Below are positions 13,851-51,239 of a DNA stretch of 64,000 bases, piece by piece; position 1 is the first letter of the stretch; each line of letters starts with the position of its first letter. This stretch comes from Mycobacterium basiliense. Its GTDB lineage: Bacteria; Actinomycetota; Actinomycetes; Mycobacteriales; Mycobacteriaceae. The DNA lies in assembly GCF_900292015.1 (NCBI RefSeq), contig NZ_LR130759.1, positions 2,790,001 to 2,854,000 of the forward strand, in the 5' to 3' direction. The position numbers and the translations under genes were made by a program. The notes beneath the pieces were generated by a model. It had not been told where the DNA came from, did not search any database, and saw only the letters and a program-made list of their open reading frames with translations.

Positions 13851-15074
13851 ATGGATTTCGGGGCGTTGCCGCCGGAAGTCAACTCCCTGCGCATGTATTC
13901 GGGCCCAGGCTCGGCGCCAATGCTGGCTGCCATGACGGCCTGGGATGCGGTTGGTGCGGAAATGCATTTGACCGCAACGGCATACGAATCGATCGTCTCT
14001 GCGCTGCTCAGCGAGGGCTGGTTGGGGCCAGCGTCGGCGGCTATGGCGGCCTCGGTCGCCCCATACGTGACGTGGCTGCGCATCACAGGCCTGCAAGCCG
14101 AGCAGACCGCCAGTCAGGCCGCCGATGCAGCAGCGGCGTTCGAGGTCGCGTTCACCATGACGGTGCCACCGGGTGTGGTTGCCGCGAACCGAGCCCGATT
14201 GGTGGCGCTTGTGGCCACCAATTTTCTGGGCATCAACACACCCGCGATCGCGGCTACCGAGGCGGAATACGCCGAGATGTGGGCTCAGGATGCGACGGCA
14301 ATGTACGCCTATGCAGCCGCCGCTGCGGAAGCGGCAACGCTGGCGTCGTTTGCCGAACCGGCGCAAGTCAGCGAGCCGTCCGGGCTGGCGGGCCAAGCCG
14401 CGGCTGTCACCCAAGCCGCCGGTCCTGCGGTAGGTAGTCTCGCGCAAAGCGAACTGCCACAACTCATGTCCGCCGTGCCGGCGAGTCTGCAAGGGTTCGC
14501 ATCACCAGCGGCGTCGTCACCACTTGACGCCATTCCGGGGTCGGGACTGCTTGCCGACATCCTGAATTTCTTGGACGGCAACGATGGGAACCCCTACGGG
14601 ATCTTCTTCAATTCGTCGTTGACAAACGGCTTTGTCTCAGCCGGGTATGTGGCTCCAGGACTGGTGCTCCCCGCGGCCACCGCCGCAATTGCCGACGTCA
14701 ACGCACTGACTCTCGACGCCGCCCCGGGGGTCGCAGTTCCGCTCATGGGCTCCGACTCCGGCGACGCGGTGTGGACCAGGCTGACGATCCCACAGTCGGG
14801 CGTGGGCAAAGTTGCGGCCGGTGCAAACCAGGCCACGCTGGTTGGCCGACTGTCCGTTCCGCCCAGTTGGGCCGCGGCTAGCGAGGTAGCGGATCATGTC
14901 GCCACCACGCTGCCGGGCGATGCGTCGCTTGGCGCCGCTGCGCCGGAGGTCGGTGCCGCGACCCACGGCGTGCCGGGCGCGCCGGGCGCAGGACTTTACG
15001 CCCGTAACTTCGGCACCGGCCCCCGATACGGCTTCCGCCTGACGATCATGCCGCGCCCACCGGCGGGTGGTTAG
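13851..15074 (+). CDS. PPE family protein, PPE-SVP subfamily (tandem paralogue)
   Basis: 407 residues from ATG 13851; a TTG nine bases upstream is the alternative start. Opening [23 protein letters not shown] domain, shared segment LDGNDGNPYGIFFNSSLTNG, SVP motif VGRLSVPPSW, C-terminus RYGFRLTIMPRPPAGG. It lies 111 bases after its close relative and no PE gene stands between them. The two share strong similarity in the C-terminal third as well as the PPE domain, unusual for PPE paralogues and a sign of recent duplication. Probable ESX-5 substrate. Confidence 0.9.
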   Translation: MDFGALPPEVNSLRMYSGPGSAPMLAAMTAWDAVGAEMHLTATAYESIVSALLSEGWLGPASAAMAASVAPYVTWLRITGLQAEQTASQAADAAAAFEVAFTMTVPPGVVAANRARLVALVATNFLGINTPAIAATEAEYAEMWAQDATAMYAYAAAAAEAATLASFAEPAQVSEPSGLAGQAAAVTQAAGPAVGSLAQSELPQLMSAVPASLQGFASPAASSPLDAIPGSGLLADILNFLDGNDGNPYGIFFNSSLTNGFVSAGYVAPGLVLPAATAAIADVNALTLDAAPGVAVPLMGSDSGDAVWTRLTIPQSGVGKVAAGANQATLVGRLSVPPSWAAASEVADHVATTLPGDASLGAAAPEVGAATHGVPGAPGAGLYARNFGTGPRYGFRLTIMPRPPAGG

Positions 15075-15244
15075 CTGTGACCGACCAGCCGGCCAATGTT
15101 GGACTGGCAGCCCGGGTTTGCCCGTTAATCTGCGGTGCGGGCGGCCGATTAGACGATCACCACAACATGCCCGCGATGGGATGCCCCATACCGGGTGAGT
15201 TGGGTTGACTCACAACGCTACGGGTGCCACGATGACCCATGCAT

Positions 15245-15408
15245 GCACCTCGCTAGGTGAGGCGTCTGCACGGATATAGGCCACTGACCTCGAACGTCGA
15301 AAGACGCCCCGGGTCAGGACAGCTCTTCCCGGCTTAAGGGTTGAGCCCAAGTGGCTTCCGGCTCCGATAGCCGGATACGCCGTGTGGTGCCAAAGCTCTG
15401 ACGAGAGG
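15245..15408 (+). ncRNA. M-box (ykoK) Mg2+-sensing riboswitch
   Basis: It carries the conserved M-box elements in order: GCTAGGTGAGGC (15252-15263), the hairpin GTCGAAAGAC with GCC (15296-15308) and the 3' strand GTGCCAAAGCTCT (15387-15399). Pairing supports the fold: CTGCACGG (15266-15273) with CCGTGTGG (15380-15387), eight pairs with two wobbles; CTGACC (15284-15289) with GGTCAG (15312-15317); and CCTCG near 15248 with CGAG(AG)G near 15402. M-boxes sense Mg2+ and control Mg2+ uptake genes. In M. tuberculosis one precedes PE20-PPE31...mgtC. Here it precedes a degenerate PE and a PPE, with mgtC 6.6 kb further on. Nothing else is recognised between it and 15698. Confidence 0.88.
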
Positions 15409-15698
15409 GGTGCCGCGCCTGGCCGTTCTGTTGGGCGTTACTCCTGCGTGTGTCGCGTCCTGGCATCCCCGCGTGCCCCGGCCCTGAGGAGGTGAGAGCG
15501 AATTGAGTCCCGGCGATAGTTCGTATGCGAGATCGATGAGCAGTTCGTTCCGATCCGACACTCCCAGCGCTGTTTTCGGAATCTGACACCACACCGGCGA
15601 TTTTCTACCACGTCTCCGCCACTCGCGGGCGTGTAGGTACCGCACGTGCCAAAACAGCGACATCAGTGGCGGTCGAGTCCTACGTCAGGAGAATTCCC

Positions 15699-15959
15699 AT
15701 GCCATTTGCGATCACGGATCCAGAAACAATCGGTAGGCCTGCGACTCGCTTGCGTTGGACCTCGACGTTGGTGGCCACGCCCGACAAAGCCAACGAAGTA
15801 GCTAACGAGGTATCAGCCTCGACAGCAACACAATTCAGGGCTCAACGCGGTGTGCACCCCGGCGAAGACGGCTTGGAACTCGGTTGTGGCGACATCAGGT
15901 GCGAAGACGGTTTCGCACCTGCGGTCACCGAGGCCGCCGGCGCTAGCTCAGCCAGCTAG
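15699..15959 (+). pseudogene. degenerate PE gene (frame-disrupted)
   Basis: An 86-codon frame with AGGAGA upstream, opening MPFAITDPETIGRPATRL like a PE protein (Pro-Glu at 8-9), then ANEVSASTATQF matching the DEVSALTAAQF block. After that the frame loses resemblance, while the +1-shifted frame reads AKTAWNSVVATSGA, which fits the AKAAAFHEQFVATLxxGA block; resemblance returns to the first frame at VTEAA near the end. Two compensating indels explain this. The stop is 14 bases before the next PPE, normal PE-PPE spacing. It could still yield an 86-residue protein, but it lacks a PE core and the YxxxE signal. Confidence 0.65.
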
Positions 15960-15973
15960 AGAAAGAGACAACC

Positions 15974-17182
15974 ATGACCGCCGCTATGGATTTCGCATCG
16001 ATGCCGCCCGAAATCAATTCGGCGCGTATGTATTCGGGACCTGGCTCAGACCCCATGCTGGCAGCCGCATCAGCCTGGAAAGGGTTGGCTGCCGAATTAC
16101 GTGTCACCGCAATGTCATATGGTTCGGTGCTCGCAGCGTTGACGGGCGAAGAATGGTACGGCCCCGCATCAGCATCCATGGCAGCTGCGGCCACACCTTA
16201 CGTGGCCTGGATGAGCACCACGGCGGTGCAGGCCGAGCAGACAGGCGTACAAGCAGAGGCCGCCGCGGCGGCCTACGAAGTCGCCTTCGCCGCGACGGTG
16301 CCCCCGGCAGCAATCGCGGCCAATCGCGCTCAACTGCTGACACTGATCGCGACCAACGTCCTGGGGCAAAACTCGCCGGCGATCGCAGCTACCGAGGCGC
16401 TGTACGCCGAAATGTGGGCCCAAGATGCGATGGCCATGTATGCCTACGCCGGCTCCTGCGCGGTCGCCACCCGGTTGAGCGAGTTTGTCCAGCCGATGCA
16501 GGCCAACAATCCTTCCCGGCTGGTTGCGCAAGCAGCAGCGGTCACCCAAGCCAGCGGTCAGGCGGCCGGTACTCAACAATCGACGCTGGCTCAGTTGATT
16601 TCGGCGGTGCCCAGCATATTGGCGGGACTCGCGTCGTCGAACTCGTCCTCTTCGGGACCAGTGGGGCTGCTCAGCAGCCTGCTGGCGGGGGACGGAACTT
16701 CCTGGCTGGAAAAGTTGTGGGAGGAATTTGGGCCCAACGCCAACATCTGGAACACCCTTGCTTCAACTGGGTTTCTGCTGCCGAGCAACATGGTCACTCC
16801 ATTCCTCGGCATGTTGGGCGGCGCGGCGGTCGCGGATGCGGCTGACGATGCGGTAGTCGCCGGCACCGGTGGGCTGGGCGGCGCGCTCACGCATCCGCTT
16901 GCGTCCACGGGCGGAATGGGGGGTGGTCTGGCCGCGGCAGCGGGAAACGCGGCCGCAGTCGGCAAGCTGTCGGTGCCACCCAGCTGGATCGCGGGCGCGC
17001 CGTTGCCCAACCCCCTGGGCTCAGCGTTGGGCGGCACACCGATGGTCGCACCACCGCCGGCCGGCGCCGCCGGATTGCCGGGAGTGCCGTTCGCCAGTAT
17101 GACCGGGCAACCCTTTGGACGTGCCGTGCCCCAGTACGGCTTTCGTCCCAGCTTCGTCGCACGACCACCCGCGGCGGGATAG
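15974..17182 (+). CDS. PPE family protein, PPE-SVP subfamily
   Basis: 402 residues (MTAAMDFASMPPEINSARMY). The PPE domain is complete (EEWYGPAS, MWAQDAMAMYAYAG). It is followed by a Ser-rich linker, a hydrophobic middle, a Gly-rich stretch, the SVP motif VGKLSVPPSW and C-terminus QYGFRP...RPPAAG. It is the first intact gene downstream of the M-box, so its expression is predicted to depend on Mg2+. Its own PE partner is degenerate. The counterpart in M. tuberculosis by order would be PPE31, but identity with that protein is not established. Confidence 0.9.
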   Translation: MTAAMDFASMPPEINSARMYSGPGSDPMLAAASAWKGLAAELRVTAMSYGSVLAALTGEEWYGPASASMAAAATPYVAWMSTTAVQAEQTGVQAEAAAAAYEVAFAATVPPAAIAANRAQLLTLIATNVLGQNSPAIAATEALYAEMWAQDAMAMYAYAGSCAVATRLSEFVQPMQANNPSRLVAQAAAVTQASGQAAGTQQSTLAQLISAVPSILAGLASSNSSSSGPVGLLSSLLAGDGTSWLEKLWEEFGPNANIWNTLASTGFLLPSNMVTPFLGMLGGAAVADAADDAVVAGTGGLGGALTHPLASTGGMGGGLAAAAGNAAAVGKLSVPPSWIAGAPLPNPLGSALGGTPMVAPPPAGAAGLPGVPFASMTGQPFGRAVPQYGFRPSFVARPPAAG

Positions 17183-18406
17183 CACCGGGACGCCGCCGGC
17201 AGTGCCGTGTTCTGCCAACTGCGCCGCTGCGGACCGGTGTGCGAAAGGTTTGCTTGCAGGCACTCCACCAGTCGATCCGCCTTACCGGCACGTCGCTCCG
17301 ATACCGCTGCCTAGCTGGTTTCCAGCAAGCTTTCAGGAATCAGTAAGTCGAGTAACAGCGATTTCTGCGTACGTTTGCCGGACGCCATGAGTAACCTTCC
17401 CCTTAACGTAAGGAGAACGGCCCGTGTCGCCCAGCTTTGCGCCCCTCCACGGAAGTGCCCACCAGGCGGCCGTGTGGGCCGGGACCGAGGCATCGCAGGT
17501 TGTTCGCCGCGCAGAAGTTTCCTGGGGTGGGAGGTGTCCGTGACGTATCAGAAGTTAGACATCCAAGCGAGGTCCGGCCGGCTGCTGAGTGACCCACGGA
17601 ACGGCGATCCGCACAGCAACACGGCCGGCATCCACCGCGTCGTTGGCGTCACCTGAAATTCGGCCATGTCCGACCGCACCGGCGTTGCTGTGTTTGGGGC
17701 CCGCCCACCGGATCCGGTTACCCATGTTGGCCACGTTTAGCGATCAGGCTTTCGCCGTCAAGGAGAAATCCAGGAGGGCATGCACAGCGTTATCCTACGG
17801 CAAATATCGCACATTAGTCCAATAGCGGAAGCGGGGTGTGGTCAGCGGTTAATGCGCCCGGATATAAGCGGAATATCGCGGATAGTTTTGAATATAATTC
17901 ACGTTGGCAATAGCGCACCGATCAATAGTTGATTGCGGGGTCAGCACACCTTTGCTGCATCGTGTTCGAGAGGGAAAATCCGCTTTAACGGTTGCCGAAT
18001 TAATGTCCGCTGACAAATCTCCATAGTAGTTTGCCTAGGCGAGACAACATGCCCTACGACTAGGTCTGTTACCTGGAAAGGAGATTGCTATGCTCGGGTC
18101 TCACAGAGGCCATCGGGTCGGTGAGATTTAGTGTTAACGTTGCGATTACGTGGCGGGAACGCAACGCAAATATCTGTTGCGCAAGATGGCGAGTGTATTC
18201 GGGTTAGGGCACCCAAATCGGGGGTAATCAATGACCTTGCGGAAGTTCCAGACGGGGGGAGCGTGGATCGATTGCCGTCAAACGCGGTGAATCAATCGCA
18301 GAGCAGTTGATGGGGTGTTTCATGAGTTCGGTAAGACTGGGGCTGGCTTACGTGCGGGACTGCCGGGGCGTGATTACCCTGGCGGTCAGCTAAACCGGAG
18401 GTGGCA
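17183..18406 (+). other. long gene-poor gap between PPE genes
   Basis: About 1.2 kb with no supported gene. Several ribosome-binding-like stretches occur without a real frame: GTAAGGAGAA at about 17408 before a GTG frame of about 39 codons, and GGAAAGGAGA at about 18076 before a 13-codon frame. The part 17750-18250 is clearly richer in A/T than its neighbours and probably contains a promoter. No M-box was found here. The end holds the ribosome binding site GGAGG (18397-18401) of the next PPE. Confidence 0.55.
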
Positions 18407-19687
18407 ATGATTGATTTTGGGGCGCTTCCGCCGGAGATCAACTCGGGGCGGATGTATGTGGGTCCAGGTGCGGCGCCGATGCTGGCCGCGGCCGCGGCCT
18501 GGGACGAACTGGCTGCGGAGTTGCAGTCCATGGCGGCTTCATATGGTTCCACGATCGCGGGCTTGACCGTAGCGCCGTGGACAGGCGCGTCTTCGATCAC
18601 CATGGCGGCAGCGGCCGCACCATACGTGACCTGGATGAATACCACAGGTGCTCAGGCCGAGCAGGTTGCCACGCAGGCGAAACTCGCCGCCGGCGCGTAC
18701 GAGACGGCGTTTGCGGCCACGGTGCCGCCACCCGTCATCGCGGCCAACCGCGCGTTGCTCATGACGCTGATCGCCACCAACATCTTCGGGCAGAACACCC
18801 CCGCCATCGCGGCCACCGAAGCTCACTACCTGGAAATGTGGGCCCAAGACGCCGCGGCGATGTATGCGTACGCCGGGTCGTCGGCCACCGCCTCAGCGTT
18901 GACACCCTTTACCGAGCCACCGCAAACCACGAATCCGGCAGCGGGCGCCGCTCAGTCGGCCGCGGTGGCTCAGGCCAGCGGCACCGCCGCCAGCTCGGAC
19001 ATCACCTCGCAGCTGGCCGGGCTGATCACCTCGGTACCCAATGCGCTACAAAGCCTGGCAACCACCAGCGCGGTGCCGAGCGCGGCATCGATCCTGCCGG
19101 AGGTTTCCCTGCCACCGTGGCTGGCGACCGACCTGGCGAACTGGAACACCATCATGGCCACCTTGACCGGGCCGTTCTCGCTGCAGGGGATCAGTTCGAT
19201 ACCGGGTGGCCCGTTCCTGTCGTTCGGGCAGGTCTATGCCTACGCGCAAAATGCGCAGGGCCTGGACGCCTTCTTCACCCCAAAGGCCATTACCGGGGCG
19301 TTGGCGCCGTTGGCCCCGGAGCTGAGTCCGGGCGGCGTCGGCCTGACGTCGGCGTCGGCGCCGGGATCGGTATCGGGGGCGATGGGGCGTGCGGCCCTCG
19401 TCGGAAGCATGTCCGTACCGCAAGGCTGGACCCAGGCCGCTCCCGCGATGAGGTTGGTCTCCTCGATTACGCCTGCCAGCCTGGCAGCCGCACCAGCAGC
19501 CGCGGTACCGGGCGAAGCGGGTGTCTTTGGCCAAATGGCACTGTCCGGCCTCGCCGGACGTGCCCTGGGCGCCAGTACCTTCGGTTCGTCGAGCGGCGGT
19601 GCGGCCGCGAGCTCACTGGGCGGTGTTGTCGCCGAGGCCGACCCCGCCGCGGCCACGATCATCGTGATCCCGGCCCTGGACGAGTAA
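18407..19687 (+). CDS. PPE family protein, PPE-SVP subfamily with atypical C-terminus
   Basis: 426 residues from ATG 18407, placed five bases after GGAGG; a GTG at 18401 overlaps that site and is less likely. PPE domain ([43 protein letters not shown]), Ala-rich linker and SVP motif [10 protein letters not shown] are present. It does not end with the usual RYGFRP...RPPAAG; instead it closes with a Gly/Ala/Ser stretch and [12 protein letters not shown]. It is followed 87 bases on by another PPE gene, then a DUF732 gene and mgtC, the arrangement of PPE31-PPE33-Rv1810-mgtC in M. tuberculosis. Confidence 0.9.
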
Positions 19688-19774
19688 GGCGGTGCCCGCC
19701 ATGAATCACCAGCACACAGACACCCGTCCGGCGCGGGCGACACCGGCGCAGAAGACCAGGTAAGGGGTACCGAC

Positions 19775-21181
19775 ATGTTCTACGCAGCGTTTCCGCCGGA
19801 GATCAACTCGGGCCGGATGTACACCGGTGCCGGATCGGGACCGATGCTGGCCGCCGCGGCGGCCTGGGACGCGGTAGCCGCCGAATTGCAGGCGACGGCC
19901 GCCTCGTATTCGTCGGTGATCGAAGGCCTGGCGAGCGGGCCGTGGATCGGTCCTTCCTCGCTGGCGATGGCCGCTGCGGCGGCGCCATATGCGACGTGGA
20001 TGAGCGCCACCGCAGCCCAAGCCGCCGAGGCGGCGGCACAAGCCACCGCGGCGGCAACCGCCTACGAGGCCGCCTTTGCCGCCCATGTGCCACCCGTCGA
20101 GATCGCGGCCAACCGCGCGCAATTGGCAATGCTGGTGGCCACCAATCTGTTTGGTCAAAATACCGCGGCGATCGCCGCAACCGAGGCGCAGTACGGCGAG
20201 ATGTGGGCACAAGACGCCACCGCGATGGACAGCTACGCCAGCTCGTCGGCGGCCGCCAGCGAGGTGACACCGTTTGCGGAGCCACCGCAAGTCGTCAACG
20301 CGACCGGCGTGGCCAGTCAAGCCGTGACGGTGGGCCAGGCCGCCGCCAGTTCGCCGGCCGCTACCGTGCAAGATCTGCTGGCAAGTGGCCCCATCTCCTG
20401 GTTACTGCAGTTGGGGGCCGACCTCAGCACCGGCTATACGGCCGCCGTCACAGCGCTGCTGAACGGTCTGTTTGGGCCAACCGGGGCGGCGACCTATGTG
20501 AGCTTGTATAACGCCATCAAAACCCCGCTGGGCTTTACCACTGGTTTCAACGACATCGGGCTGCTGATCAACTTCCCGGCCTCCCAATTCCTCAAGTTTG
20601 CTCCGCACCCGGGGCTGGGCCCGCTCCCGAAGGACGCGCTGGGGGGTGGGCTGGGGCTCGGTCCGCACTGGGGCCAGGGCACACTTTTCAATGCGATATC
20701 GCCGGACGGGCCGACGGTCCACTGGGGACGAGGCACCCTGGTCGGGAAATTGACGGTTCCGCCGAGCTGGGCCGCCGCCACGCCCACCATCCGGACCGTA
20801 GCTGCTGCCCTGTCCGCCGCCGGGCCGGAAGCTGTCCCCGCGGCAGCGCTCGGCGAAGGGAGCTTGCTGAGTTCGATGGCGGTCGCGGGCATGCTCGGCA
20901 GTGCCTTCGGCGCGGCGGCGCCGGACGCATATAAGCGCGCCGGCGTCCGCGGGCGTCTTGCCCCGCTCAAAGACCTCAAGGACGCCACGTCACCGGAAAA
21001 ACTGAAGCGTCTGGTCGCACAGATATCGGAGAAACCCGAGAGCGTTCAGCACCACAGCGTGGATCAGGAGGGCCTGGACAGCCTGCTGGAACAACTGGCA
21101 AAGAAACCCGGCATCCATGCCGTGCACTTGTCCAAAGGTGACAAAGCCAAAGTCGTACCTTCGGATGCGCAGCGCGGCTAG
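19775..21181 (+). CDS. PPE family protein with charged C-terminal extension
   Basis: 468 residues. The opening [20 protein letters not shown] departs from MDFGALPPE but keeps Pro-Pro-Glu. PPE domain, linker and a variant SVP motif (VGKLTVPPSW) are present. After it, instead of the RPPAAG ending, there is a roughly 85-residue charged, Lys-rich tail. The tail includes LDSLLEQLAKKPGIHAVH followed by a GDKAK stretch, which resembles the last part of MgtC encoded 0.8 kb downstream (LERLVAELSLQPGIYAVH then GDQAD). Start follows GTAAGGGGTACC. Probable surface or secreted protein of the Mg2+-linked cluster; the tail's role is unknown. Confidence 0.88.
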   Translation: MFYAAFPPEINSGRMYTGAGSGPMLAAAAAWDAVAAELQATAASYSSVIEGLASGPWIGPSSLAMAAAAAPYATWMSATAAQAAEAAAQATAAATAYEAAFAAHVPPVEIAANRAQLAMLVATNLFGQNTAAIAATEAQYGEMWAQDATAMDSYASSSAAASEVTPFAEPPQVVNATGVASQAVTVGQAAASSPAATVQDLLASGPISWLLQLGADLSTGYTAAVTALLNGLFGPTGAATYVSLYNAIKTPLGFTTGFNDIGLLINFPASQFLKFAPHPGLGPLPKDALGGGLGLGPHWGQGTLFNAISPDGPTVHWGRGTLVGKLTVPPSWAAATPTIRTVAAALSAAGPEAVPAAALGEGSLLSSMAVAGMLGSAFGAAAPDAYKRAGVRGRLAPLKDLKDATSPEKLKRLVAQISEKPESVQHHSVDQEGLDSLLEQLAKKPGIHAVHLSKGDKAKVVPSDAQRG

Positions 21182-21531
21182 CGCCCCGGCGCAACTCAGC
21201 AGAACAACGAGTGGTGGATCGATATGTCTGACATGTCCGATTTGGCAACCAACTTCGTCTCGGTAACCCCCACGGTGGCGACGTTGAGATCGGCGACGTC
21301 CGTCGGAATGCGCGCTGGTCTTCGCCGCGGCTCGTCACTAGTTCCGATGCTGGACAACGTATTCAGGCCATCAAACGGAATGGCGCCGGGTATCGCCGAC
21401 GAGTGGCTCCGCGCCGTCACGGCACCCGTCGACAACGGTCACCGGTTCGGGCGGCAACACCTTCGGAGAGCCGGCTTCGGCCACCATGCGACAGCTGGCA
21501 AAGTTGCCGCGGAAGGGGAGAATGGTTAGCT
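21182..21531 (+). other. gap between PPE gene and DUF732 gene
   Basis: About 350 bases. A 101-codon plus-strand frame (21224-21529, MSDMSDLATNFVSVTP...) is open but has only a weak upstream site, no known domain and uneven codon use, so it is not called as a gene. The end supplies a purine-rich site (GAAGGGGAGAATGG) for the downstream gene. Confidence 0.4.
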
Positions 21532-21849
21532 ATGAAAGCGGTATTAGCGCTACTGGGGGCGTGTGCCATGATCGGCTTGGCCGCGCCCGCGTATGCCCAC
21601 CCGGACGAGAACGGTGACGACGCCGGCTTCCTGTCCGCTCTGCAACAAGCCGGCATCACCTATTCAGACCCGGGTCAAGCCATCGGATCCGCCAAAGCGG
21701 TGTGCTGGTGCCTGGATGGTGGCGAATCCGGCCTAGAGCTAGTGCATGACGTAAAGACCCACAATCCTGGCTTCAACATGGAGGCCGCGTCCCAGTTCGC
21801 CATGCTCGCGGCGAAGTTTTATTGTCCTCACCACCTCAACCAGGCCTGA
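21532..21849 (+). CDS. secreted DUF732 family protein (Rv1810-like)
   Basis: 105 residues. A clear signal peptide (MKAVLALLGACAMIGLAAP then AYA-H cleavage) is followed by a DUF732 domain with the family pattern: FLSALQQAGITYSDPGQAI, Cys pair near residues 60-62 and a C-terminal Cys (KFYCP). DUF732 proteins are small exported mycobacterial proteins of unknown function. In M. tuberculosis Rv1810 sits between PPE33 and mgtC and responds to Mg2+ starvation and phosphate-type regulators. ATG 21532 is chosen because upstream codons lack signal-peptide character. Confidence 0.9.
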   Translation: MKAVLALLGACAMIGLAAPAYAHPDENGDDAGFLSALQQAGITYSDPGQAIGSAKAVCWCLDGGESGLELVHDVKTHNPGFNMEAASQFAMLAAKFYCPHHLNQA

Positions 21850-21987
21850 TTCACTACCACAAAGCCAGGCGCGATTCCCCCGTCCCGGGAGGCGCCGCAA
21901 TACAACCGGTTCGCCTGTCACCTGCCGTTAACCCGCGTGTGGTTAGCTGCGGTCGCCGTCTAGCCGGTCGGAAAGGGGGGCGGTGCA

Positions 21988-22716
21988 GTGCAGAACCTGA
22001 GCATCGCCGACTTCGCGCTCCGGCTCGCAGTGGGGATGGGCTGCGGCGCCCTCATCGGCCTGGAACGGCAATGGCGGGCCCGCATGGCCGGGCTCCGCAC
22101 CAATGCGCTGGTGGCCACCGGAGCGACCCTGTTTGTGCTCTACGCCGCGGCCACCGAAGACAGCAGCCCGACTCGGGTTGCCTCCTATGTCGTTTCGGGA
22201 ATCGGGTTTCTCGGCGGTGGAGTGATTCTGCGCGAAGGATTCAATGTCCGCGGCCTCAATACTGCCGCCACGCTGTGGTGCTCTGCTGCGGTCGGCGTAC
22301 TGGCCGCCTCCGGACATCTGGTGTTCGCCCTGATCGCCACCGGCACCGTCGTCGCCATCCATGTGCTCGGGCGTCCGTTGGGCCGACTGATCGATCACGA
22401 TGGCGCGGTCGAGGAAGACGAGGGCCTAGAACCCTACCGGGTACAAATCCTCTGCCGGCCCAAGTCGGCGAAGTATGCACGCGCCCAAATCGTGCAACAC
22501 ACCGCGCGCAACGACATTATCCTGCGTGGTATTCACACCGGACAGGCCAGCGACGACAACATCACGTTGACCGCCCACGTCCTGATGAACGGCCATACCC
22601 CGGCCAAACTGGAACGCTTGGTGGCCGAGTTATCTTTGCAACCCGGCATTTACGCGGTGCATTGGTACACCGGCGATCAGGCCGATCCGTTGTTGCCGGC
22701 TTCGCAGTCCGATTGA
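21988..22716 (+). CDS. mgtC: MgtC family virulence-associated membrane protein
   Basis: 242 residues, GTG start (MQNLSIADFALRLAVG) after GGAAAGGGGGGCGG. The N-terminal half is the MgtC/SapB membrane domain, with IGLERQWRARMAGLRTNALV and the GIGFLGGGVI motif and about four or five transmembrane helices. The C-terminal half (from about 145) is the soluble ACT-like domain ending PGIYAVHWYTGDQ. MgtC is needed for growth in low Mg2+ and inside macrophages; it inhibits rather than transports in other bacteria. It is the last gene of the cluster that starts near the M-box. It lies convergent with the Rv1812c-like gene, 20 bases away. Confidence 0.95.
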   Translation: MQNLSIADFALRLAVGMGCGALIGLERQWRARMAGLRTNALVATGATLFVLYAAATEDSSPTRVASYVVSGIGFLGGGVILREGFNVRGLNTAATLWCSAAVGVLAASGHLVFALIATGTVVAIHVLGRPLGRLIDHDGAVEEDEGLEPYRVQILCRPKSAKYARAQIVQHTARNDIILRGIHTGQASDDNITLTAHVLMNGHTPAKLERLVAELSLQPGIYAVHWYTGDQADPLLPASQSD

Positions 22717-22736
22717 CTGCGGTCCAATCGAGGTGT

Positions 22737-23936
22737 CTAGGGACGAGACTGCAGGTCCGGCGCGGCGGCCGCCAACAAGTCGCCGCGGCTACGAGTCAGC
22801 GGTGGGTAGATGCGTCGTGTGTTAATGGTTTGCTTGGTGGCCTTGGCCTGTGCGCCACACGACACCACCACCCGATCCCATCCCTCGGTGTACACCGCGC
22901 CCGCCGGACCAAGATCGAGAACTGTTACATACCAAGGGATCCGAAGAGCAAGCATCGGTTCATCGAACAGATCGCTGATGACGTTGTACCCGGCATAGCG
23001 GCCCATTGGCCGCCCGTGCTGGCAGGACATCACCGACATGTGCTGGTCATCCATCCGCGCCGCAGCCACGTCGCCGGCAGCGAATATGGCGGGCACTCCA
23101 GTCGCCCGCAGGTAGTCGTCGACCTCGATCCGGCCCAGTCGATCGCGGCGTACCGCCAATTGTTGTGTGAGCGAGCTGGCCCGCATTCCAGCGCACCACA
23201 CCACGGTTCCCGCCTCGAGCCGCTCACCCGATGACAGCAACACCCCGGCCGCACTGACCGCGGCTACGCTGACCCCGGTGCGGGTCTGAACACCGTTGTC
23301 GGACAAGGCTTGTTCGATCACCGGCCGCGCTGCGGCACCCATATCGGAACCGACCCACCGATTGTGGTCAACCAGCACCACTCGGGGCGTGCCGGCCCGC
23401 CCGGCGAACAATGCTTCGAGCCTACTCGGCAGCTCGCATGCGGTCTCGATTCCGGTCAGCCCGGCACCGACCACCGCGACGGTGGCCGCTGCGATGGTCG
23501 GCGGACCAGTGGCCAGGCTTTGCAGATGGTGTTGCAGTCGGAGCGCGGCGTCGTAGCTATCGACATCGAATCCGAATTCGGCCAATCCTGGTAGGTCTGG
23601 CTTGATCAGCCGACTGCCCGATGCGAGCACCAACCGGTCATAGCCATATGTTCGGCCGCATGACGTGGTGACAGTTTTTGCGTCGGAGTCGATTCCCACA
23701 ACCTCTGCGGTGATGTGCCCGACACCGACGGGGTCCAGCACGTCGGCCAGGGGGATGCGGCACTCGGTCAGGTCGGCCTCGTAGTTGCGAACCCTGATGT
23801 CATGAAACGGTTTGGCGCTCAACACCGTGATGGCGACCGTCCCCGGCGGGACGGCGAGCTCTTCGAGTCGTCGGGCGGCGCCGAGTGCGGCCCACAGCCC
23901 CGCGAAACCGGAGCCAATCACCAGGACCCGGATCAA
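22737..23936 (-). CDS. NADH dehydrogenase-like FAD-dependent oxidoreductase (Rv1812c-like)
   Basis: 399 residues if translation starts at the TTG that overlaps the stop of the upstream hydrolase (TTGA, 23933-23936). A longer frame to 24032 would run back into that gene and is rejected. Two Rossmann dinucleotide motifs are seen: VLVIGSGFAGLWAA at the N-terminus for FAD and VAVVGAGLTGIETA in the middle for NAD(P)H. AAGDVAAARM near the C-terminus is the usual flavin contact. It is a type II NADH dehydrogenase-like enzyme; the electron acceptor is not evident. In M. tuberculosis Rv1813c, not a lipase, is the neighbour. Confidence 0.88.
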   Translation of the reverse strand: MIRVLVIGSGFAGLWAALGAARRLEELAVPPGTVAITVLSAKPFHDIRVRNYEADLTECRIPLADVLDPVGVGHITAEVVGIDSDAKTVTTSCGRTYGYDRLVLASGSRLIKPDLPGLAEFGFDVDSYDAALRLQHHLQSLATGPPTIAAATVAVVGAGLTGIETACELPSRLEALFAGRAGTPRVVLVDHNRWVGSDMGAAARPVIEQALSDNGVQTRTGVSVAAVSAAGVLLSSGERLEAGTVVWCAGMRASSLTQQLAVRRDRLGRIEVDDYLRATGVPAIFAAGDVAAARMDDQHMSVMSCQHGRPMGRYAGYNVISDLFDEPMLALRIPWYVTVLDLGPAGAVYTEGWDRVVVSCGAQAKATKQTINTRRIYPPLTRSRGDLLAAAAPDLQSRP

Positions 23937-48082: not shown

Positions 48083-48130
48083 ACGCGCGCGGCCCACGGC
48101 GGGCCGAGTAAACTGGACGCCGCATCACCC

Positions 48131-48345
48131 CGCGCGGGAGAGTGCTGTAGCCGCCAGCTACAGACGCCGAAGGAGCAAGACCTCTCCGCCAACCTCTCAG
48201 GCACCCGGGACCGCGCGAGATCATGATGCCTCTGGAAAGCGGTGGTGACCGGCAGCGGTCCTCACCCGCCGATGGGGAAAGGTGCCGGCTAGCTCCCGGC
48301 GCCGAATCTCTCAGGCGCCTGACGTACGGGTAGAGACAGAGGGAG
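48131..48345 (+). ncRNA. tandem glycine riboswitch (two aptamers)
   Basis: Two glycine aptamers lie in series. Aptamer I (48131-48220) has GCGCGGGAGAG paired with the CGCGCGAGA strand, core GCCGAAGGAGCAA and CTCTCAGGCA. Aptamer II (48229-48345) is closed by CCTCTG (48229-48234) with CAGAGG (48337-48342), with core GCCGATGGGGAAA and CTCTCAGGCGC. Behind it CCCTA (48351-48355) can pair with TAGGG (48370-48374), a possible switch element. The leader precedes gcvB, so glycine most likely turns glycine cleavage on; a terminator U-tract is not visible, and the mechanism is not settled. Confidence 0.95.
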
Positions 48346-48413
48346 AGGGTCCCTAGTCCTTCTGCCTTGTAGGGCCTCTAGCAGGCCACTTGGTGCCCAG
48401 TCAGGAGTTCACC

Positions 48414-51239
48414 GTGTCCGATAATTCCACGTTCGCAGACCGCCACATAGGCTTGGACCCCCAGGCTGTCGCGACGATGCTTGCGGTCATCGGCGTCGAT
48501 ACTCTCGACGACCTGGCCGCCAAGGCGGTGCCGAAGGGCATCCTGGACAAACTCGCCGACGCCGGCACCGCACCGGGCCTGGACCGACTCCCGCCGGCCG
48601 CTAGCGAGGCGGAGGCGTTGGCCGAGCTGCGTGCGCTGGCCAACGCCAACACGGTGGCCGTGTCGATGATCGGGCAGGGCTACTACGACACCATCACCCC
48701 ACCGGTTCTGCTGCGGAACATCCTGGAAAACCCCGCCTGGTACACGGCGTATACGCCCTACCAGCCCGAAATCAGTCAGGGTCGGTTGGAAGCCTTACTG
48801 AATTTCCAAACCATGGTGACCGATCTCACCGGCCTAGAGATCGCGAACGCATCGATGCTCGACGAAGGCACCGCCGCAGCTGAGGCCATGACCCTGATGC
48901 AGCGCGCAACCCGCGGCCCGGCAAAGCGGCTGGCCGTTGACGTCGACGTGTTTGAGCAAACCGCGGTGGTGTTGGCCACCCGCGCGAAGCCGTTGGGTAT
49001 CGAGATCGTCACCGCCGATCTGCGGGATGGGCTGCCCGAGGGTGAATTTTTCGGCGTCATCGCCCAGCTGCCCGGAGCCAGCGGCCGGCTCACCGACTGG
49101 ACCCAGCTGGTGGAGCAGGCCCACGACCGCGGCGCGCTGGTGGCCATCGGCGCCGACCTGTTGGCCCTGACCCTGGTTGCGCCGCCGGGGGAGATTGGCG
49201 CCGATGTCGCATTCGGTACCACCCAGCGTTTCGGTGTCCCAATGGGTTTCGGCGGCCCGCACGCCGGCTATCTGTCCGTGCACGCCAAGCACGCCCGTCA
49301 GCTACCCGGACGACTGGTCGGTGTGTCGGTCGACAGCGACGGCAATTCGGCCTACCGGCTAGCGCTGCAGACCCGTGAGCAACATATCCGTCGGGACAAG
49401 GCAACCAGCAATATTTGCACCGCCCAGGTGCTGCTTGCGGTAATGGCCGCAATGTATGCCAGCTATCACGGCGCCGATGGGCTGGTCGGCATTGCACGAC
49501 GAGTGCATGGTCATGCCGAGACCATCGCCGGCGCGCTGGGCGACGCGGTGGTGCATGACAGGTTTTTCGATACCGTGCTGGCGCGGGTGCCGGGGCGTGC
49601 CGACGAGGTGTTGGCGGCGGCCAAGGCCAGTGGCGTCAACGTGTGGCGAGTCGATGCCGACCATGTGTCGGTGGCCTGCGACGAGGTCACCACCGACACC
49701 CAGGTGGCCATTGTGCTGGATGCCTTCGGGGTGTCGGCCGCCGCACCGGCCAGCGCCGACATCGCCACGCGCACTTCGGAGTTCTTGACCCATCCTGCGT
49801 TCACCCAGTACCGCACCGAGACATCGATGATGCGGTACCTGCGCGCGCTGGCGGACAAAGATATTGCGTTGGACCGCAGCATGATTCCGCTCGGTTCGTG
49901 CACCATGAAGCTCAACGCCGCTACCGAGATGGAGTCAATCACCTGGCCGGAATTCGGACGCCAGCATCCGTTCGCGCCGGCATCGGATACGCCGGGGCTG
50001 CGGCGGCTCATCGCCGACCTGGAAAGCTGGTTGACGGCCATTACCGGCTACGACGCGGTCTCGCTGCAGCCCAACGCGGGTTCGCAGGGCGAATACGCCG
50101 GGCTGTTGGCGATTCACGAGTACCACGCCAGCAGGGGAGAGCCGCAACGCGACATCTGCCTGATCCCGTCCAGCGCGCACGGCACCAACGCGGCTTCGGC
50201 CGCGCTGGCCGGGATGCGGGTGGTCGTGGTGGGTTGTCATGACAACGGCGACGTCGATCTCCATGATCTGCGCGCCAAGATCAGCGACCACGCCGATCGG
50301 CTGTCGGCGTTGATGATCACCTACCCGTCCACGCACGGCGTGTACGAGCACGACATCGCCGAGATCTGCGCGGCCGTGCACGATGCCGGCGGCCAGGTGT
50401 ACGTGGACGGCGCCAACCTCAACGCGCTGGTCGGCCTGGCCCGGCCCGGCAAGTTCGGCGGCGATGTGAGTCACCTGAACCTGCACAAGACCTTCTGCAT
50501 CCCACACGGCGGCGGCGGTCCGGGAGTGGGGCCGGTGGCGGTGCGTTCCCATCTGTCTCAGTTTCTGCCGGGCCATCCGTTCGCCCCGGAGCTGCCACAG
50601 GGGTATCCGGTGGCGTCGGCGCCCTACGGGTCGGCGTCGATTTTGCCTATCACGTGGGCCTACATCCGGATGATGGGCGCCGACGGCCTGCGGACGGCGT
50701 CGCAGACCGCGATCACGTCGGCCAACTACATTGCCCGGCGGCTCGACGAATACTTCCCGGTGCTGTACACCGGCGAGAACGGCATGGTCGCTCACGAATG
50801 CATCCTGGACCTGCGCGGCATCACCAAGTCCACCGGCGTGACCGTCGACGATGTCGCGAAACGGTTGGCAGACTACGGCTTTCACGCTCCGACCATGAGT
50901 TTTCCGGTGGCCGGCACGCTCATGGTGGAGCCGACCGAGAGCGAAAGTCTCGCCGAAGTCGACGCATTCTGCGACGCGATGATCAGCATCCGCCGCGAAA
51001 TCGACCGGGTGGGATCCGGGCAGTGGCCAGCCGACGACAATCCACTGCGCGGTGCGCCGCACACCGCCGAGTCGCTGTTGGTCGCCGACTGGGATCACCC
51101 GTACACCCGCGAAGAGGCCGCCTACCCGCTCGGTGCTGCGTTCCGGCCCAAGGTCTGGCCGGCGACGCGCCGTATCGACGGGGCCTACGGTGACCGCAAC
51201 TTGATCTGCTCGTGCCCGCCGGTGGAGGCGTTCGCCTAA
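48414..51239 (+). CDS. gcvB: glycine dehydrogenase (decarboxylating), P protein
   Basis: 941 residues from GTG 48414 with CAGGAG nine bases upstream. It is the fused P protein of mycobacteria: N-terminal and C-terminal halves both have the PLP-enzyme fold, with the cofactor Lys692 in [13 protein letters not shown]. It decarboxylates glycine and hands the aminomethyl group to GcvH. The upstream tandem riboswitch predicts glycine control. It is convergent with a PE_PGRS gene 22 bases away. Confidence 0.97.

What the first reader, a model, noticed from the sequence alone, without database searches (positions are those of the whole stretch)
15245..15408. Well-formed M-box Mg2+ riboswitch in front of a PE/PPE unit
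Seen: all conserved M-box blocks and three compensating helices, including an 8-bp P2 with two wobbles. Known: M-boxes control Mg2+ transport genes, and a related copy lies before PE20-PPE31 in M. tuberculosis. Inferred: PPE expression at 15974, and possibly the PPE-DUF732-mgtC run, is Mg2+-dependent. That would tie ESX-5 exported proteins to Mg2+ starvation in this species.
Basis: partly seen in the sequence, partly recalled or inferred. Interest (0 to 1): 0.72.

Follow-up and report, generated by a model that had tools for sequence, protein, structure and literature searches.

The report
Magnesium riboswitch before a PPE operon
A magnesium-sensing RNA switch of an already described mycobacterial type sits in front of a run of PPE cell-surface protein genes ending in mgtC; in some other actinobacteria the same kind of switch and mgtC flank a magnesium transporter, which suggests that PPE genes were built into an old magnesium-uptake unit.

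Summary
The M-box is real: RF00380 at 15242-15416, 144.6 bits against a cut-off of 44. It has a promoter-like site upstream and is of the pe20-type described in M. tuberculosis in 2026 (PMC12810186): SD1/uORF1, anti-SD, SD2 and uORF2 are present, and the scan found no terminator-like site near it. The main claim is thus a new member of a known kind.

There is no intact PE gene. A 1.2-kb gap separates the first PPE from the rest. mgtC has its own conserved upstream block at 21927-21950, and in M. marinum 840 bp upstream of mgtC suffice for its Mg2+ control (PMC4278808). The M-box most likely governs uORF2 and the first PPE; its control of mgtC is doubtful.

New here: (1) 16 of 18 M-box-bearing non-mycobacterial mgtC loci read M-box, NRMT-type Mg2+ transporter, mgtC, and some mycobacteria carry M-box, PE, PPE, NRMT, mgtC. 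(2) A hairpin between SD1 and anti-SD, kept in shape but not in sequence. (3) Much of the 'conserved' uORF2 looks constrained as nucleotide sequence rather than peptide.

The parts
15205..15233 (+). promoter-like site: TTGACT, 17 nt, CACGAT, 8 nt before the aptamer
   Evidence: Same layout (>=8 of 12 positions, spacer 17-18) in 159 of 163 mycobacterial M-box leaders with enough upstream DNA; mononucleotide-shuffle control 8 of 163. The generic sigma-70 scan, with stricter rules, finds no promoter in 15080-22800.
15242..15416 (+). M-box (Mg2+) riboswitch aptamer, RF00380
   Evidence: 144.6 bits, E 9.7e-33, full-length; fold z -2.57
15406..15412 (+). SD1 / anti-anti-SD (AGGGGTG) inside the 3' end of the aptamer
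   Evidence: Pairs with anti-SD in the MFE of 15395-15600; role as in PMC12810186
15410..15487 (+). uORF1: GTG start, 25 codons, TGA overlaps SD2
   Evidence: Read from sequence; selection on it not supported here: the other two frames stay open as long
15415..15438 (+). hairpin H1 (arms 15415-15423 and 15430-15438) between SD1 and anti-SD
   Evidence: MFE; H1-like hairpin in 47 of 51 pe20-type leaders against 19.8 expected from shuffles, 46 distinct stems; its loop-closing pair is among the listed covarying pairs in pe20- and rv1535-type
15439..15445 (+). anti-SD (TACTCCT)
   Evidence: Pairs with SD1 in the MFE; position as in PMC12810186. The best RNAduplex partner of SD2 in the window leader was another stretch
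15462..15477 (+). hairpin H2 (GGCAT/GTGCC) before SD2
   Evidence: one covarying pair in this stem in NRAMP-type leaders
15487..15493 (+). SD2 (AGGAGGT)
   Evidence: Read from sequence; SD1 and SD2 anchors were both found in 162 of 166 leaders of the three types
15503..15586 (+). uORF2 (Rv1805A-like), TTG start, 27 codons, LSPGDSSYARSMSSSFRSDTPSAVFGI
   Evidence: The other two copies in this genome start ATG. uORF2 called in 161, 158 or 153 of 162 leaders, by three scripts with different rules
15496..15550 (+). helix between the uORF2 start region (15496-15505) and uORF2 coding sequence (15541-15550)
   Evidence: MFE; >=5 pairs between the two regions in the MFE of 44 of 51 pe20-, 70 of 85 rv1535-, 25 of 26 NRAMP-type leaders (no shuffled control for this count)
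15699..15959 (+). PE-like remnant ORF, 86 aa, no PE domain detectable
15974..17182 (+). PPE1 (PPE31 position), PPE + PPE-SVP domains
   Evidence: PF00823 224.3 bits, PF12484 59.2 bits
17183..18400 (+). 1218-nt gap, GC 0.58 (down to 0.46 per 100 nt), conserved patch before PPE2
18401..19687 (+). PPE2 (PPE + PPE-SVP)
   Evidence: PF00823 226.7 bits
19775..21181 (+). PPE3 (PPE + PPE-SVP)
   Evidence: PF00823 219.6 bits
21532..21849 (+). DUF732 protein (Rv1810 position)
   Evidence: PF05305 63.8 bits on the longer in-frame ORF 21403-21849
21927..21950 (+). conserved block GTTAACCCGCGTGTGGTTAGCTGC upstream of mgtC, putative own promoter or regulator site
   Evidence: Pattern in 25 of 39 mycobacterial mgtC loci; only match in the 5.6-Mb genome with up to 2 mismatches, control 0
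21988..22716 (+). mgtC, the only MgtC-family match in the genome
   Evidence: PF02308 121.7 bits; single match genome-wide

Best explanation
A working pe20-type M-box. When Mg2+ is plentiful, the folded aptamer holds SD1 in its closing helix; the pyrimidine-rich anti-SD is then free to pair with SD2, uORF2 is not translated and Rho ends the transcript. When Mg2+ is low, that helix opens, SD1 pairs with the anti-SD over hairpin H1, SD2 is freed, uORF2 is translated, and transcription runs on into the first PPE gene, whose product serves Mg2+ scarcity. Shown here: aptamer, leader anatomy, no terminator-like site near it, conservation. Shown by others in relatives: Rho termination and the SD1/anti-SD/SD2 interplay (M. 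tuberculosis leader, lacZ in M. smegmatis), Mg2+ control of pe20 by its leader, about 30-fold PPE31 induction (M. marinum). Inferred: that it works the same way in this species. In evolution, PE/PPE genes most likely entered an older Mg2+-uptake neighbourhood of M-box, NRMT transporter and mgtC; in this lineage PE then decayed and mgtC probably kept or gained its own control.
For: Aptamer. Leader parts. In the MFE, SD1 (15406-15412) pairs with anti-SD (15439-15445) capped by H1. H1-like hairpins in 47 of 51 pe20-type, 84 of 85 rv1535-type and 18 of 26 NRAMP-type leaders against 19.8, 30.0 and 9.3 expected; the loop-closing pair of H1 (my count along the printed consensus) is among the listed covarying pairs in pe20-type (177-184, z 11.3) and rv1535-type (177-182, z 8.1). 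None of the 3 terminator-like sites in 15080-22800 lies near the leader. Promoter-like layout in 159 of 163. Published tests: PMC12810186, PMC4278808. Origin: M-box, NRAMP, mgtC in that order in 16 of 18 M-box-bearing loci among 42 non-mycobacterial mgtC loci; the two NRAMPs tested are NRMT-like (best PDB match 7QIA, 176 and 201 bits, next best 69 and 42.5; 7QIA is EleNRMT, a Mg2+ transporter, PMC8806188, passages); M-box, PE, PPE, NRAMP, mgtC orders in mycobacteria (L245, L234).
Against: The anti-SD pairings are hardly better than shuffled sequence: mean z for SD2 -1.14 / 0.18 / 0.03 and for SD1 -0.44 / -0.07 / -1.27 in pe20-, rv1535- and NRAMP-type; the window itself -0.7 and +0.3, and its best RNAduplex partner for SD2 is not the anti-SD. 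The leader 15395-15600 as a whole folds less stably than 198 of 200 shuffles. In the covariation listing (top 70 pairs per type) no SD1/anti-SD, anti-SD/SD2 or uORF2-start helix stands out, and of H1 only one pair in two of three types. The 1.2-kb gap and the mgtC block argue against one M-box-driven transcript to mgtC. Origin: the NRMTs of PE/PPE loci are not in the clade of the NRMTs that precede mgtC in other actinobacteria, and the two NRMT-bearing PE/PPE operons with mgtC are nested in one mycobacterial mgtC clade.
Confidence: 0.82

Rival explanations
1. The M-box controls only uORF2 and PPE1. PPE2 onward and mgtC are transcribed from their own promoters, mgtC from the conserved block at 21927-21950, which may itself be Mg2+-responsive.
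For: 1218-nt gap between PPE1 and PPE2 with a conserved patch just before PPE2; block upstream of mgtC in 25 of 39 loci and unique in the genome; M. marinum mgtC with 840 bp upstream is normally Mg2+-regulated at another site (PMC4278808).
Against: RNA-seq in M. tuberculosis suggests one transcript from pe20 to mgtC (PMC12810186); no promoter consensus found in the region; the block is missing in 14 of 39 loci.
Confidence: 0.5
2. The conserved product is the uORF2 peptide (Rv1805A-like), and the riboswitch exists mainly to control it, as proposed for M. tuberculosis.
For: uORF2 is open in nearly all leaders (161, 158 or 153 of 162 by three rules); its first ~10 codons show pN/pS 0.27, 0.50 and 0.36 in pe20-, rv1535- and NRAMP-type.
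Against: Whole-ORF pN/pS 0.78, 0.88, 0.75 and flat entropy over codon positions, while genes downstream of the same M-boxes give 0.14-0.63 with more variable third positions; conserved residues keep one codon (e.g. Ser AGT 148 of 149, Arg CGA 93 of 99); the RNA helix offers another reason. PMC12810186 reports no visible biofilm effect of rv1805A.
Confidence: 0.3
3. The element is a decayed M-box, no longer switching, because PE is gone.
For: PE remnant; TTG instead of ATG start of uORF2.
Against: Full-length aptamer far above threshold, promoter layout and SD1/anti-SD/SD2 kept; 25 of 54 pe20-type leaders lack a detectable PE yet keep an M-box.
Confidence: 0.06

Closest known systems
pe20 (Rv1806) M-box of M. 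tuberculosis, pe20-type class (D'Halluin et al. 2026, PMC12810186)
   Same: Aptamer family, SD1/uORF1/anti-SD/SD2/uORF2 order, no intrinsic terminator, downstream PPE genes, gene of unknown function and mgtC
   Different: No intact PE; uORF2 starts with TTG (ATG in that paper); long gap after PPE1; a conserved block before mgtC, not mentioned in the text read
M. marinum PPE31-mgtC locus (PMC4278808)
   Same: PPE genes, hypothetical gene, mgtC; low-Mg2+ induction expected
   Different: Regulatory site of mgtC not mapped there; a candidate block is given here
B. subtilis ykoK/mgtE M-box (RF00380 founder)
   Same: Aptamer and presumed OFF-switch logic
   Different: No terminator-like site near it; the genes downstream are PPE genes, not a transporter
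M-box-controlled NrmT/NRMT Mg2+ transporters (PMC4072509, PMC8806188)
   Same: M-box plus NRMT in the same genome (C1:238558) and in related actinobacterial mgtC loci
   Different: No NRAMP match lies in the window operon; PPE genes stand between M-box and mgtC

Membership tests
RF00380 M-box riboswitch | Covariance score over the curated cut-off | tested here: met
   144.6 bits against 44, full model
RF00380 M-box riboswitch | Lies in the 5' leader of a plausible Mg2+-related gene | tested here: met
   Promoter-like site upstream; PPE genes and mgtC downstream on the same strand
RF00380 M-box riboswitch | Mg2+ binding and Mg2+-dependent switching | not testable with these tools
   Needs in-line probing or a reporter
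RF00380 M-box riboswitch | Intrinsic terminator as expression platform (ykoK case; not required of all members) | tested here: not met
   No terminator-like site near the leader; a translational platform is reported for the M. tuberculosis relative
pe20-type mycobacterial M-box | SD1/uORF1, anti-SD, SD2, uORF2 in order | tested here: met
pe20-type mycobacterial M-box | Multiple pe/ppe genes downstream, in several species then a gene of unknown function and mgtC ('almost exclusively' in the paper, whose classes come from a tree of aptamer plus leader) | tested here: met
   Three PPE genes, DUF732, mgtC; the PE is degenerate, and lacking in 24 of the other 53 pe20-type leaders examined. The paper's tree was not rebuilt; my pe20-type label means PE or PPE as first classed gene
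pe20-type mycobacterial M-box | Rho-dependent termination in the leader | not testable with these tools
   Shown in M. tuberculosis (PMC12810186)
PE/PPE pair secreted by ESX-5 as Mg2+ route | Intact PE partner encoded with the PPE | tested here: not met
   a partner in trans is possible, 134 PE matches in the genome

The most novel reading that the evidence does not exclude
PE/PPE genes entered an ancestral actinobacterial Mg2+-uptake unit (M-box, NRMT inner-membrane transporter, mgtC), first as an outer-membrane addition (M-box, PE, PPE, NRMT, mgtC, still seen in some mycobacteria), then in the window's lineage in place of the transporter. There the PE decayed and mgtC is run from its own conserved element. 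The leader's 'conserved peptide' gene is in its second half an RNA part of the switch.
Probability: 0.4. Interest if true: 0.65.

Novelty: new member of a known kind. Interest (0 to 1): 0.42.

Why it matters
The M-box itself repeats in another mycobacterium what was published in 2026. The added value is threefold. The origin of Mg2+-controlled PE/PPE genes becomes a testable history, and the mixed operons tie PE/PPE to an inner-membrane Mg2+ importer, in line with the view that PE/PPE pairs pass nutrients through the outer membrane. The unmapped Mg2+-dependent element of mgtC in M. marinum gets a candidate site. And part of the conservation of the uORF2 peptide can be tested as RNA rather than protein. 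The M-box class called 'manganese-type' in that paper probably carries NRMT-type Mg2+ transporters (inference).

Tried and rejected
Rejected or weak: a single consensus structure over all three leader types (RNAalifold gave none and the script then failed). An RNAalifold run with ribosum scoring that suggested long helices in uORF2, but with a large positive covariation term, not used as evidence. Anti-SD pairing as statistically special: weak. H1 per leader: although it is frequent, only 20 of 51, 18 of 85 and 12 of 26 leaders beat their own shuffles at p <= 0.05. H2: score cut reached in 35 of 51, 80 of 85 and 25 of 26 (expected 21.5, 49.7, 9.4), but p <= 0.05 in only 1, 40 and 1. uORF1 as a selected ORF: the other frames are equally open. 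The uORF2-start helix: supported by shuffles in pe20-type (z -1.81, 24 of 51), not in rv1535-type (z -0.20, 3 of 85; own arms -11.53, swapped -11.86), weakly in NRAMP-type (z -0.97, 5 of 26; whose 5' arms pair best on average with rv1535-type 3' arms). A first pN/pS estimate (26-aa peptides only) gave 0.87-0.93; the fuller one gave 0.75-0.88 with stronger constraint in the first ten codons, so 'no peptide constraint' was dropped. The idea that uORF2 works like the MgtL leader peptide was recalled and only searched for in papers, not tested. No other Rfam element in 15000-23000 except a chance-level hit. Four 4.4-4.6-Mb genomes were looked at to find the M. tuberculosis leader for comparison; their M-box places did not match its published coordinates, so it was not used. 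Two papers listed were checked by passages for earlier reports of the M-box/NRAMP/mgtC order; none seen.

Rows dropped: L003 (same DNA as the window); 8 of 201 M-box places as duplicates and 20 non-mycobacterial of the remaining 193; 10 of 193 places with no classed gene downstream were left out of the type analyses; 3 of 54 pe20-type and 1 of 27 NRAMP-type leaders without clear anchors. The PE model was scored on the loci it was built from. L086 and L087 are two contigs of one strain. The start-codon script allowed only a fixed list of codons. The M-box profile used was built from mycobacterial M-boxes and may miss others.

Full report
WHAT IS THERE. The window holds a full-length M-box aptamer at 15242-15416 (RF00380, 144.6 bits, cut-off 44, E 9.7e-33). 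The genome (5.61 Mb, one contig) has two more M-boxes: C1:2451240 (154.4 bits), followed by a small ORF that I call Rv1535-like by synteny and recall, and C1:238558 (150.8 bits), followed by a small ORF and an NRAMP-family gene. M-boxes occur in 199 of 396 genomes of the genus examined.

SURROUNDINGS. Upstream lies a promoter-like pair TTGACT-17-CACGAT; the same layout occurs in 159 of 163 mycobacterial M-box leaders against 8 of 163 mononucleotide-shuffled. Further upstream are EccD, mycosin, EccE and EccA genes of a type VII secretion locus (that it is ESX-5 rests on synteny and recall) and two PPE genes. Downstream are a PE-like remnant ORF (15699-15959), PPE (15974-17182), a 1218-nt gap, PPE (18401-19687), PPE (19775-21181), DUF732 (21532-21849) and mgtC (21988-22716). 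It is the only MgtC-family match in the genome.

THE PE IS GONE. Pfam finds nothing in the 86-aa ORF at E <= 1. The six-frame PF00934 scan of the genome lists 134 PE matches, none at this place. A model built from 27 PEs of sister loci plus one window PE scores those 27 at 130-157 bits (by construction) but the window ORF at 8.5 bits on a short stretch. Of 54 pe20-type leaders, 27 have such a PE, 2 a partial one, and 25, including the window, none above 17 bits; six of the other 24 show weak partial matches (L039, L041, L043, L050, L172, L224; 9-17 bits), as remnants might, and 18 show none at i-E below 0.5.

LEADER ANATOMY AND MECHANISM. The literature already has the mechanism for the M. tuberculosis relative (PMC12810186; main text read up to the start of the reference list): a translational platform plus Rho, with SD1, anti-SD and SD2 competing, a weakly expressed uORF1 and a well-expressed uORF2 (Rv1805A). 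These parts are in the window (coordinates in 'parts'). The MFE of 15395-15600 shows the presumed low-Mg2+ form: SD1 with anti-SD, capped by a 9-bp hairpin H1, although that stretch as a whole folds less well than 198 of 200 shuffles. The scan found no terminator-like site near the leader. The window's uORF2 starts with TTG; both other copies in this genome start with ATG. Over 51 pe20-type leaders the script called TTG 22, ATG 14, GTG 8, ATT 2, ATA 1, CTG 1, none 3; rv1535-type leaders ATG 81 and GTG 4 of 85; NRAMP-type ATG 20, GTG 3, TTG 2, none 1 of 26.

NEW LEADER FEATURES, WITH THEIR LIMITS. H1: a hairpin directly after SD1 reaches the score cut in 47 of 51 pe20-type, 84 of 85 rv1535-type and 18 of 26 NRAMP-type leaders (19.8, 30.0, 9.3 expected from shuffles), with mean folding z of -2.37, -1.81 and -2.33 and 46, 28 and 25 distinct stems: structure kept, sequence not. 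In the covariation listing its loop-closing pair appears in pe20-type (z 11.3; C-G 28, T-G 9, G-C 3 among 51) and rv1535-type (z 8.1; C-G 70, A-T 4, T-G 3 among 85), but its other pairs do not. Singly, only 20 of 51, 18 of 85 and 12 of 26 leaders beat their own shuffles at p <= 0.05. The words 'hairpin' and 'stem' do not occur in the text of PMC12810186; its figures were not visible. A second helix joins the uORF2 start region to uORF2's own coding sequence: at least 5 pairs in the MFE of 44 of 51, 70 of 85 and 25 of 26 leaders (no shuffled control for that count); pe20-type 5' arms pair best with pe20-type 3' arms and rv1535-type with rv1535-type, NRAMP-type slightly better with rv1535-type than with its own; only the pe20-type clearly beats shuffles (z -1.81; -0.20 and -0.97 for the others), and within rv1535-type swapped arms pair slightly better than own ones.

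IS uORF2 A PEPTIDE GENE? The first ten codons look coding (pN/pS 0.27, 0.50, 0.36 in pe20-, rv1535-, NRAMP-type), but the whole ORF gives 0.78, 0.88 and 0.75 with about equal variability at all three codon positions, whereas genes downstream of the same M-boxes give 0.14 to 0.63 with more variable third positions. Many conserved residues keep one codon: Ser AGT 136 of 140 and 148 of 149, Ser TCC 121 of 123, Arg CGA 93 of 99. So the front looks like a peptide under selection, the rest like nucleotide-level constraint, perhaps the helix above. This does not contradict the published expression of uORF2; it questions how much of its conservation is protein.

CONTROL OF mgtC. 16 mycobacterial mgtC upstream regions chosen for alignment share a block. 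Over 39 mycobacterial mgtC loci a looser pattern is found 52-115 nt upstream of mgtC in 25; the 14 without it include the eight loci in which a single PPE precedes mgtC (L055, L057, L061-L066) and six others (L044, L050, L054, L059, L068, L069). A fuller pattern has exactly one match, allowing 2 mismatches, in the 5.6-Mb genome, at window 21927-21950. In M. marinum, PPE31 and mgtC rise about 30-fold in low Mg2+, and sequences within 840 bp upstream of mgtC suffice for its regulation (PMC4278808, section 16 read); [quoted passage not shown] The block is a candidate. For M. tuberculosis, on the other hand, one transcript from pe20 to mgtC is reported, with only slight mgtC induction (1.5-fold, as cited in PMC4278808).

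WHERE THE OPERON COMES FROM. Of the 80 mgtC loci, 42 are non-mycobacterial; 18 of these have an M-box, and 16 of the 18 read M-box, NRAMP, mgtC on one strand, with up to 2.7 kb between NRAMP and mgtC (Amycolatopsis, Catenulispora, Kitasatospora, Streptomyces, Streptacidiphilus, Saccharothrix and others). The two others are M-box, mgtC (L082) and one with the NRAMP match split in two (L088). The NRAMPs are of the magnesium kind: best PDB match 7QIA at 176 bits (Amycolatopsis) and 201 bits (own genome), next best 69 and 42.5; 7QIA is EleNRMT (passages); the motif GDNDAG[GA] stands in 53 of 55 listed NRAMP rows, some of them repeats of one gene. M-box control of such NrmT transporters is published for Clostridium (PMC4072509, passages). 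In several mycobacteria PE/PPE and NRMT genes share the neighbourhood: L245 reads M-box, PE, PPE, M-box, PE, PPE, PPE, NRMT, mgtC; L234 reads M-box, PE, PPE, NRMT, M-box, PE, PPE, PPE, PPE, DUF732, PPE, PPE, mgtC; NRMT also lies among PE/PPE in L235, L238, L239, L244, L246, L247 and, split in two, L236 (9 of 17 long stretches; mgtC was within reach in 3 of 17: L234, L240, L245). Mycobacterial mgtC is one clade (100/99), next to Amycolatopsis with weak support (85/55). Limits: the NRMTs of the PE/PPE loci form their own clade, away from those that precede mgtC in other actinobacteria (rooting unsure, the MntH outgroup was left out by the tool and another row has a very long branch), and the two NRMT-bearing operons with mgtC lie within one mycobacterial clade. 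So shared membership of one Mg2+ neighbourhood is shown; exact replacement of one NRMT by PE/PPE is inferred.

COMPARISON AND NOVELTY. The element is an RF00380 M-box and, by leader and synteny, of the published pe20-type. [quoted passage not shown] the present data supply the likely older state and mixed states. Searches for M-box with Nramp and mgtC returned only that paper, and for M-box riboswitch with Actinobacteria nothing (open-licence PMC papers only); one search listed 7 papers, among them the Clostridium NrmT paper, and passages of two others showed no such report. The paper's 'manganese-type' class probably corresponds to the NRMT genes here, which look like Mg2+ transporters.

Noticed in passing
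window 48125-48349: Tandem glycine riboswitch (57.0 and 42.3 bits) directly before gcvP (48390-51239).
   Followed up: partly
window 21927-21950: Conserved block upstream of mgtC, unique in the genome, in 25 of 39 mycobacterial mgtC loci; candidate for the unmapped Mg2+ element of M. marinum mgtC.
   Followed up: partly
window 17183-18400: 1.2-kb gap between PPE1 and PPE2; 0.90-0.94 kb in 6 of 9 relatives compared, 0.22-0.63 kb in 3; a conserved patch lies before PPE2.
   Followed up: partly
L118, L145, L128, L141, L153, L079, L086: Tandem and back-to-back M-box pairs: several M-box, PE, PPE cassettes in a row, or divergent M-boxes driving NRMT one way and PE/PPE the other.
   Followed up: partly
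L002 (own genome C1:238558): M-box followed by a small conserved ORF and an NRMT-type gene; probably the class called manganese-type in the 2026 paper, but the closest solved structure is a Mg2+ transporter.
   Followed up: yes
uORF2 of L050, L221, L151: Apparent ATT or ATA start codons in uORF2 of some pe20-type leaders.
   Followed up: no
L042 1416-4405: Between M-box and PPE1 an IS21-type IstB gene is present (M. terramassiliense).
   Followed up: no
window 21224-21529: 101-aa ORF between PPE3 and DUF732 with no Pfam match.
   Followed up: no
rv1535-type leaders, uORF2: One strongly covarying column pair inside uORF2 (273-290 of the printed alignment, T-A 50, C-G 27 of 85, z 11.3) that belongs to no helix described here.
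   Followed up: no
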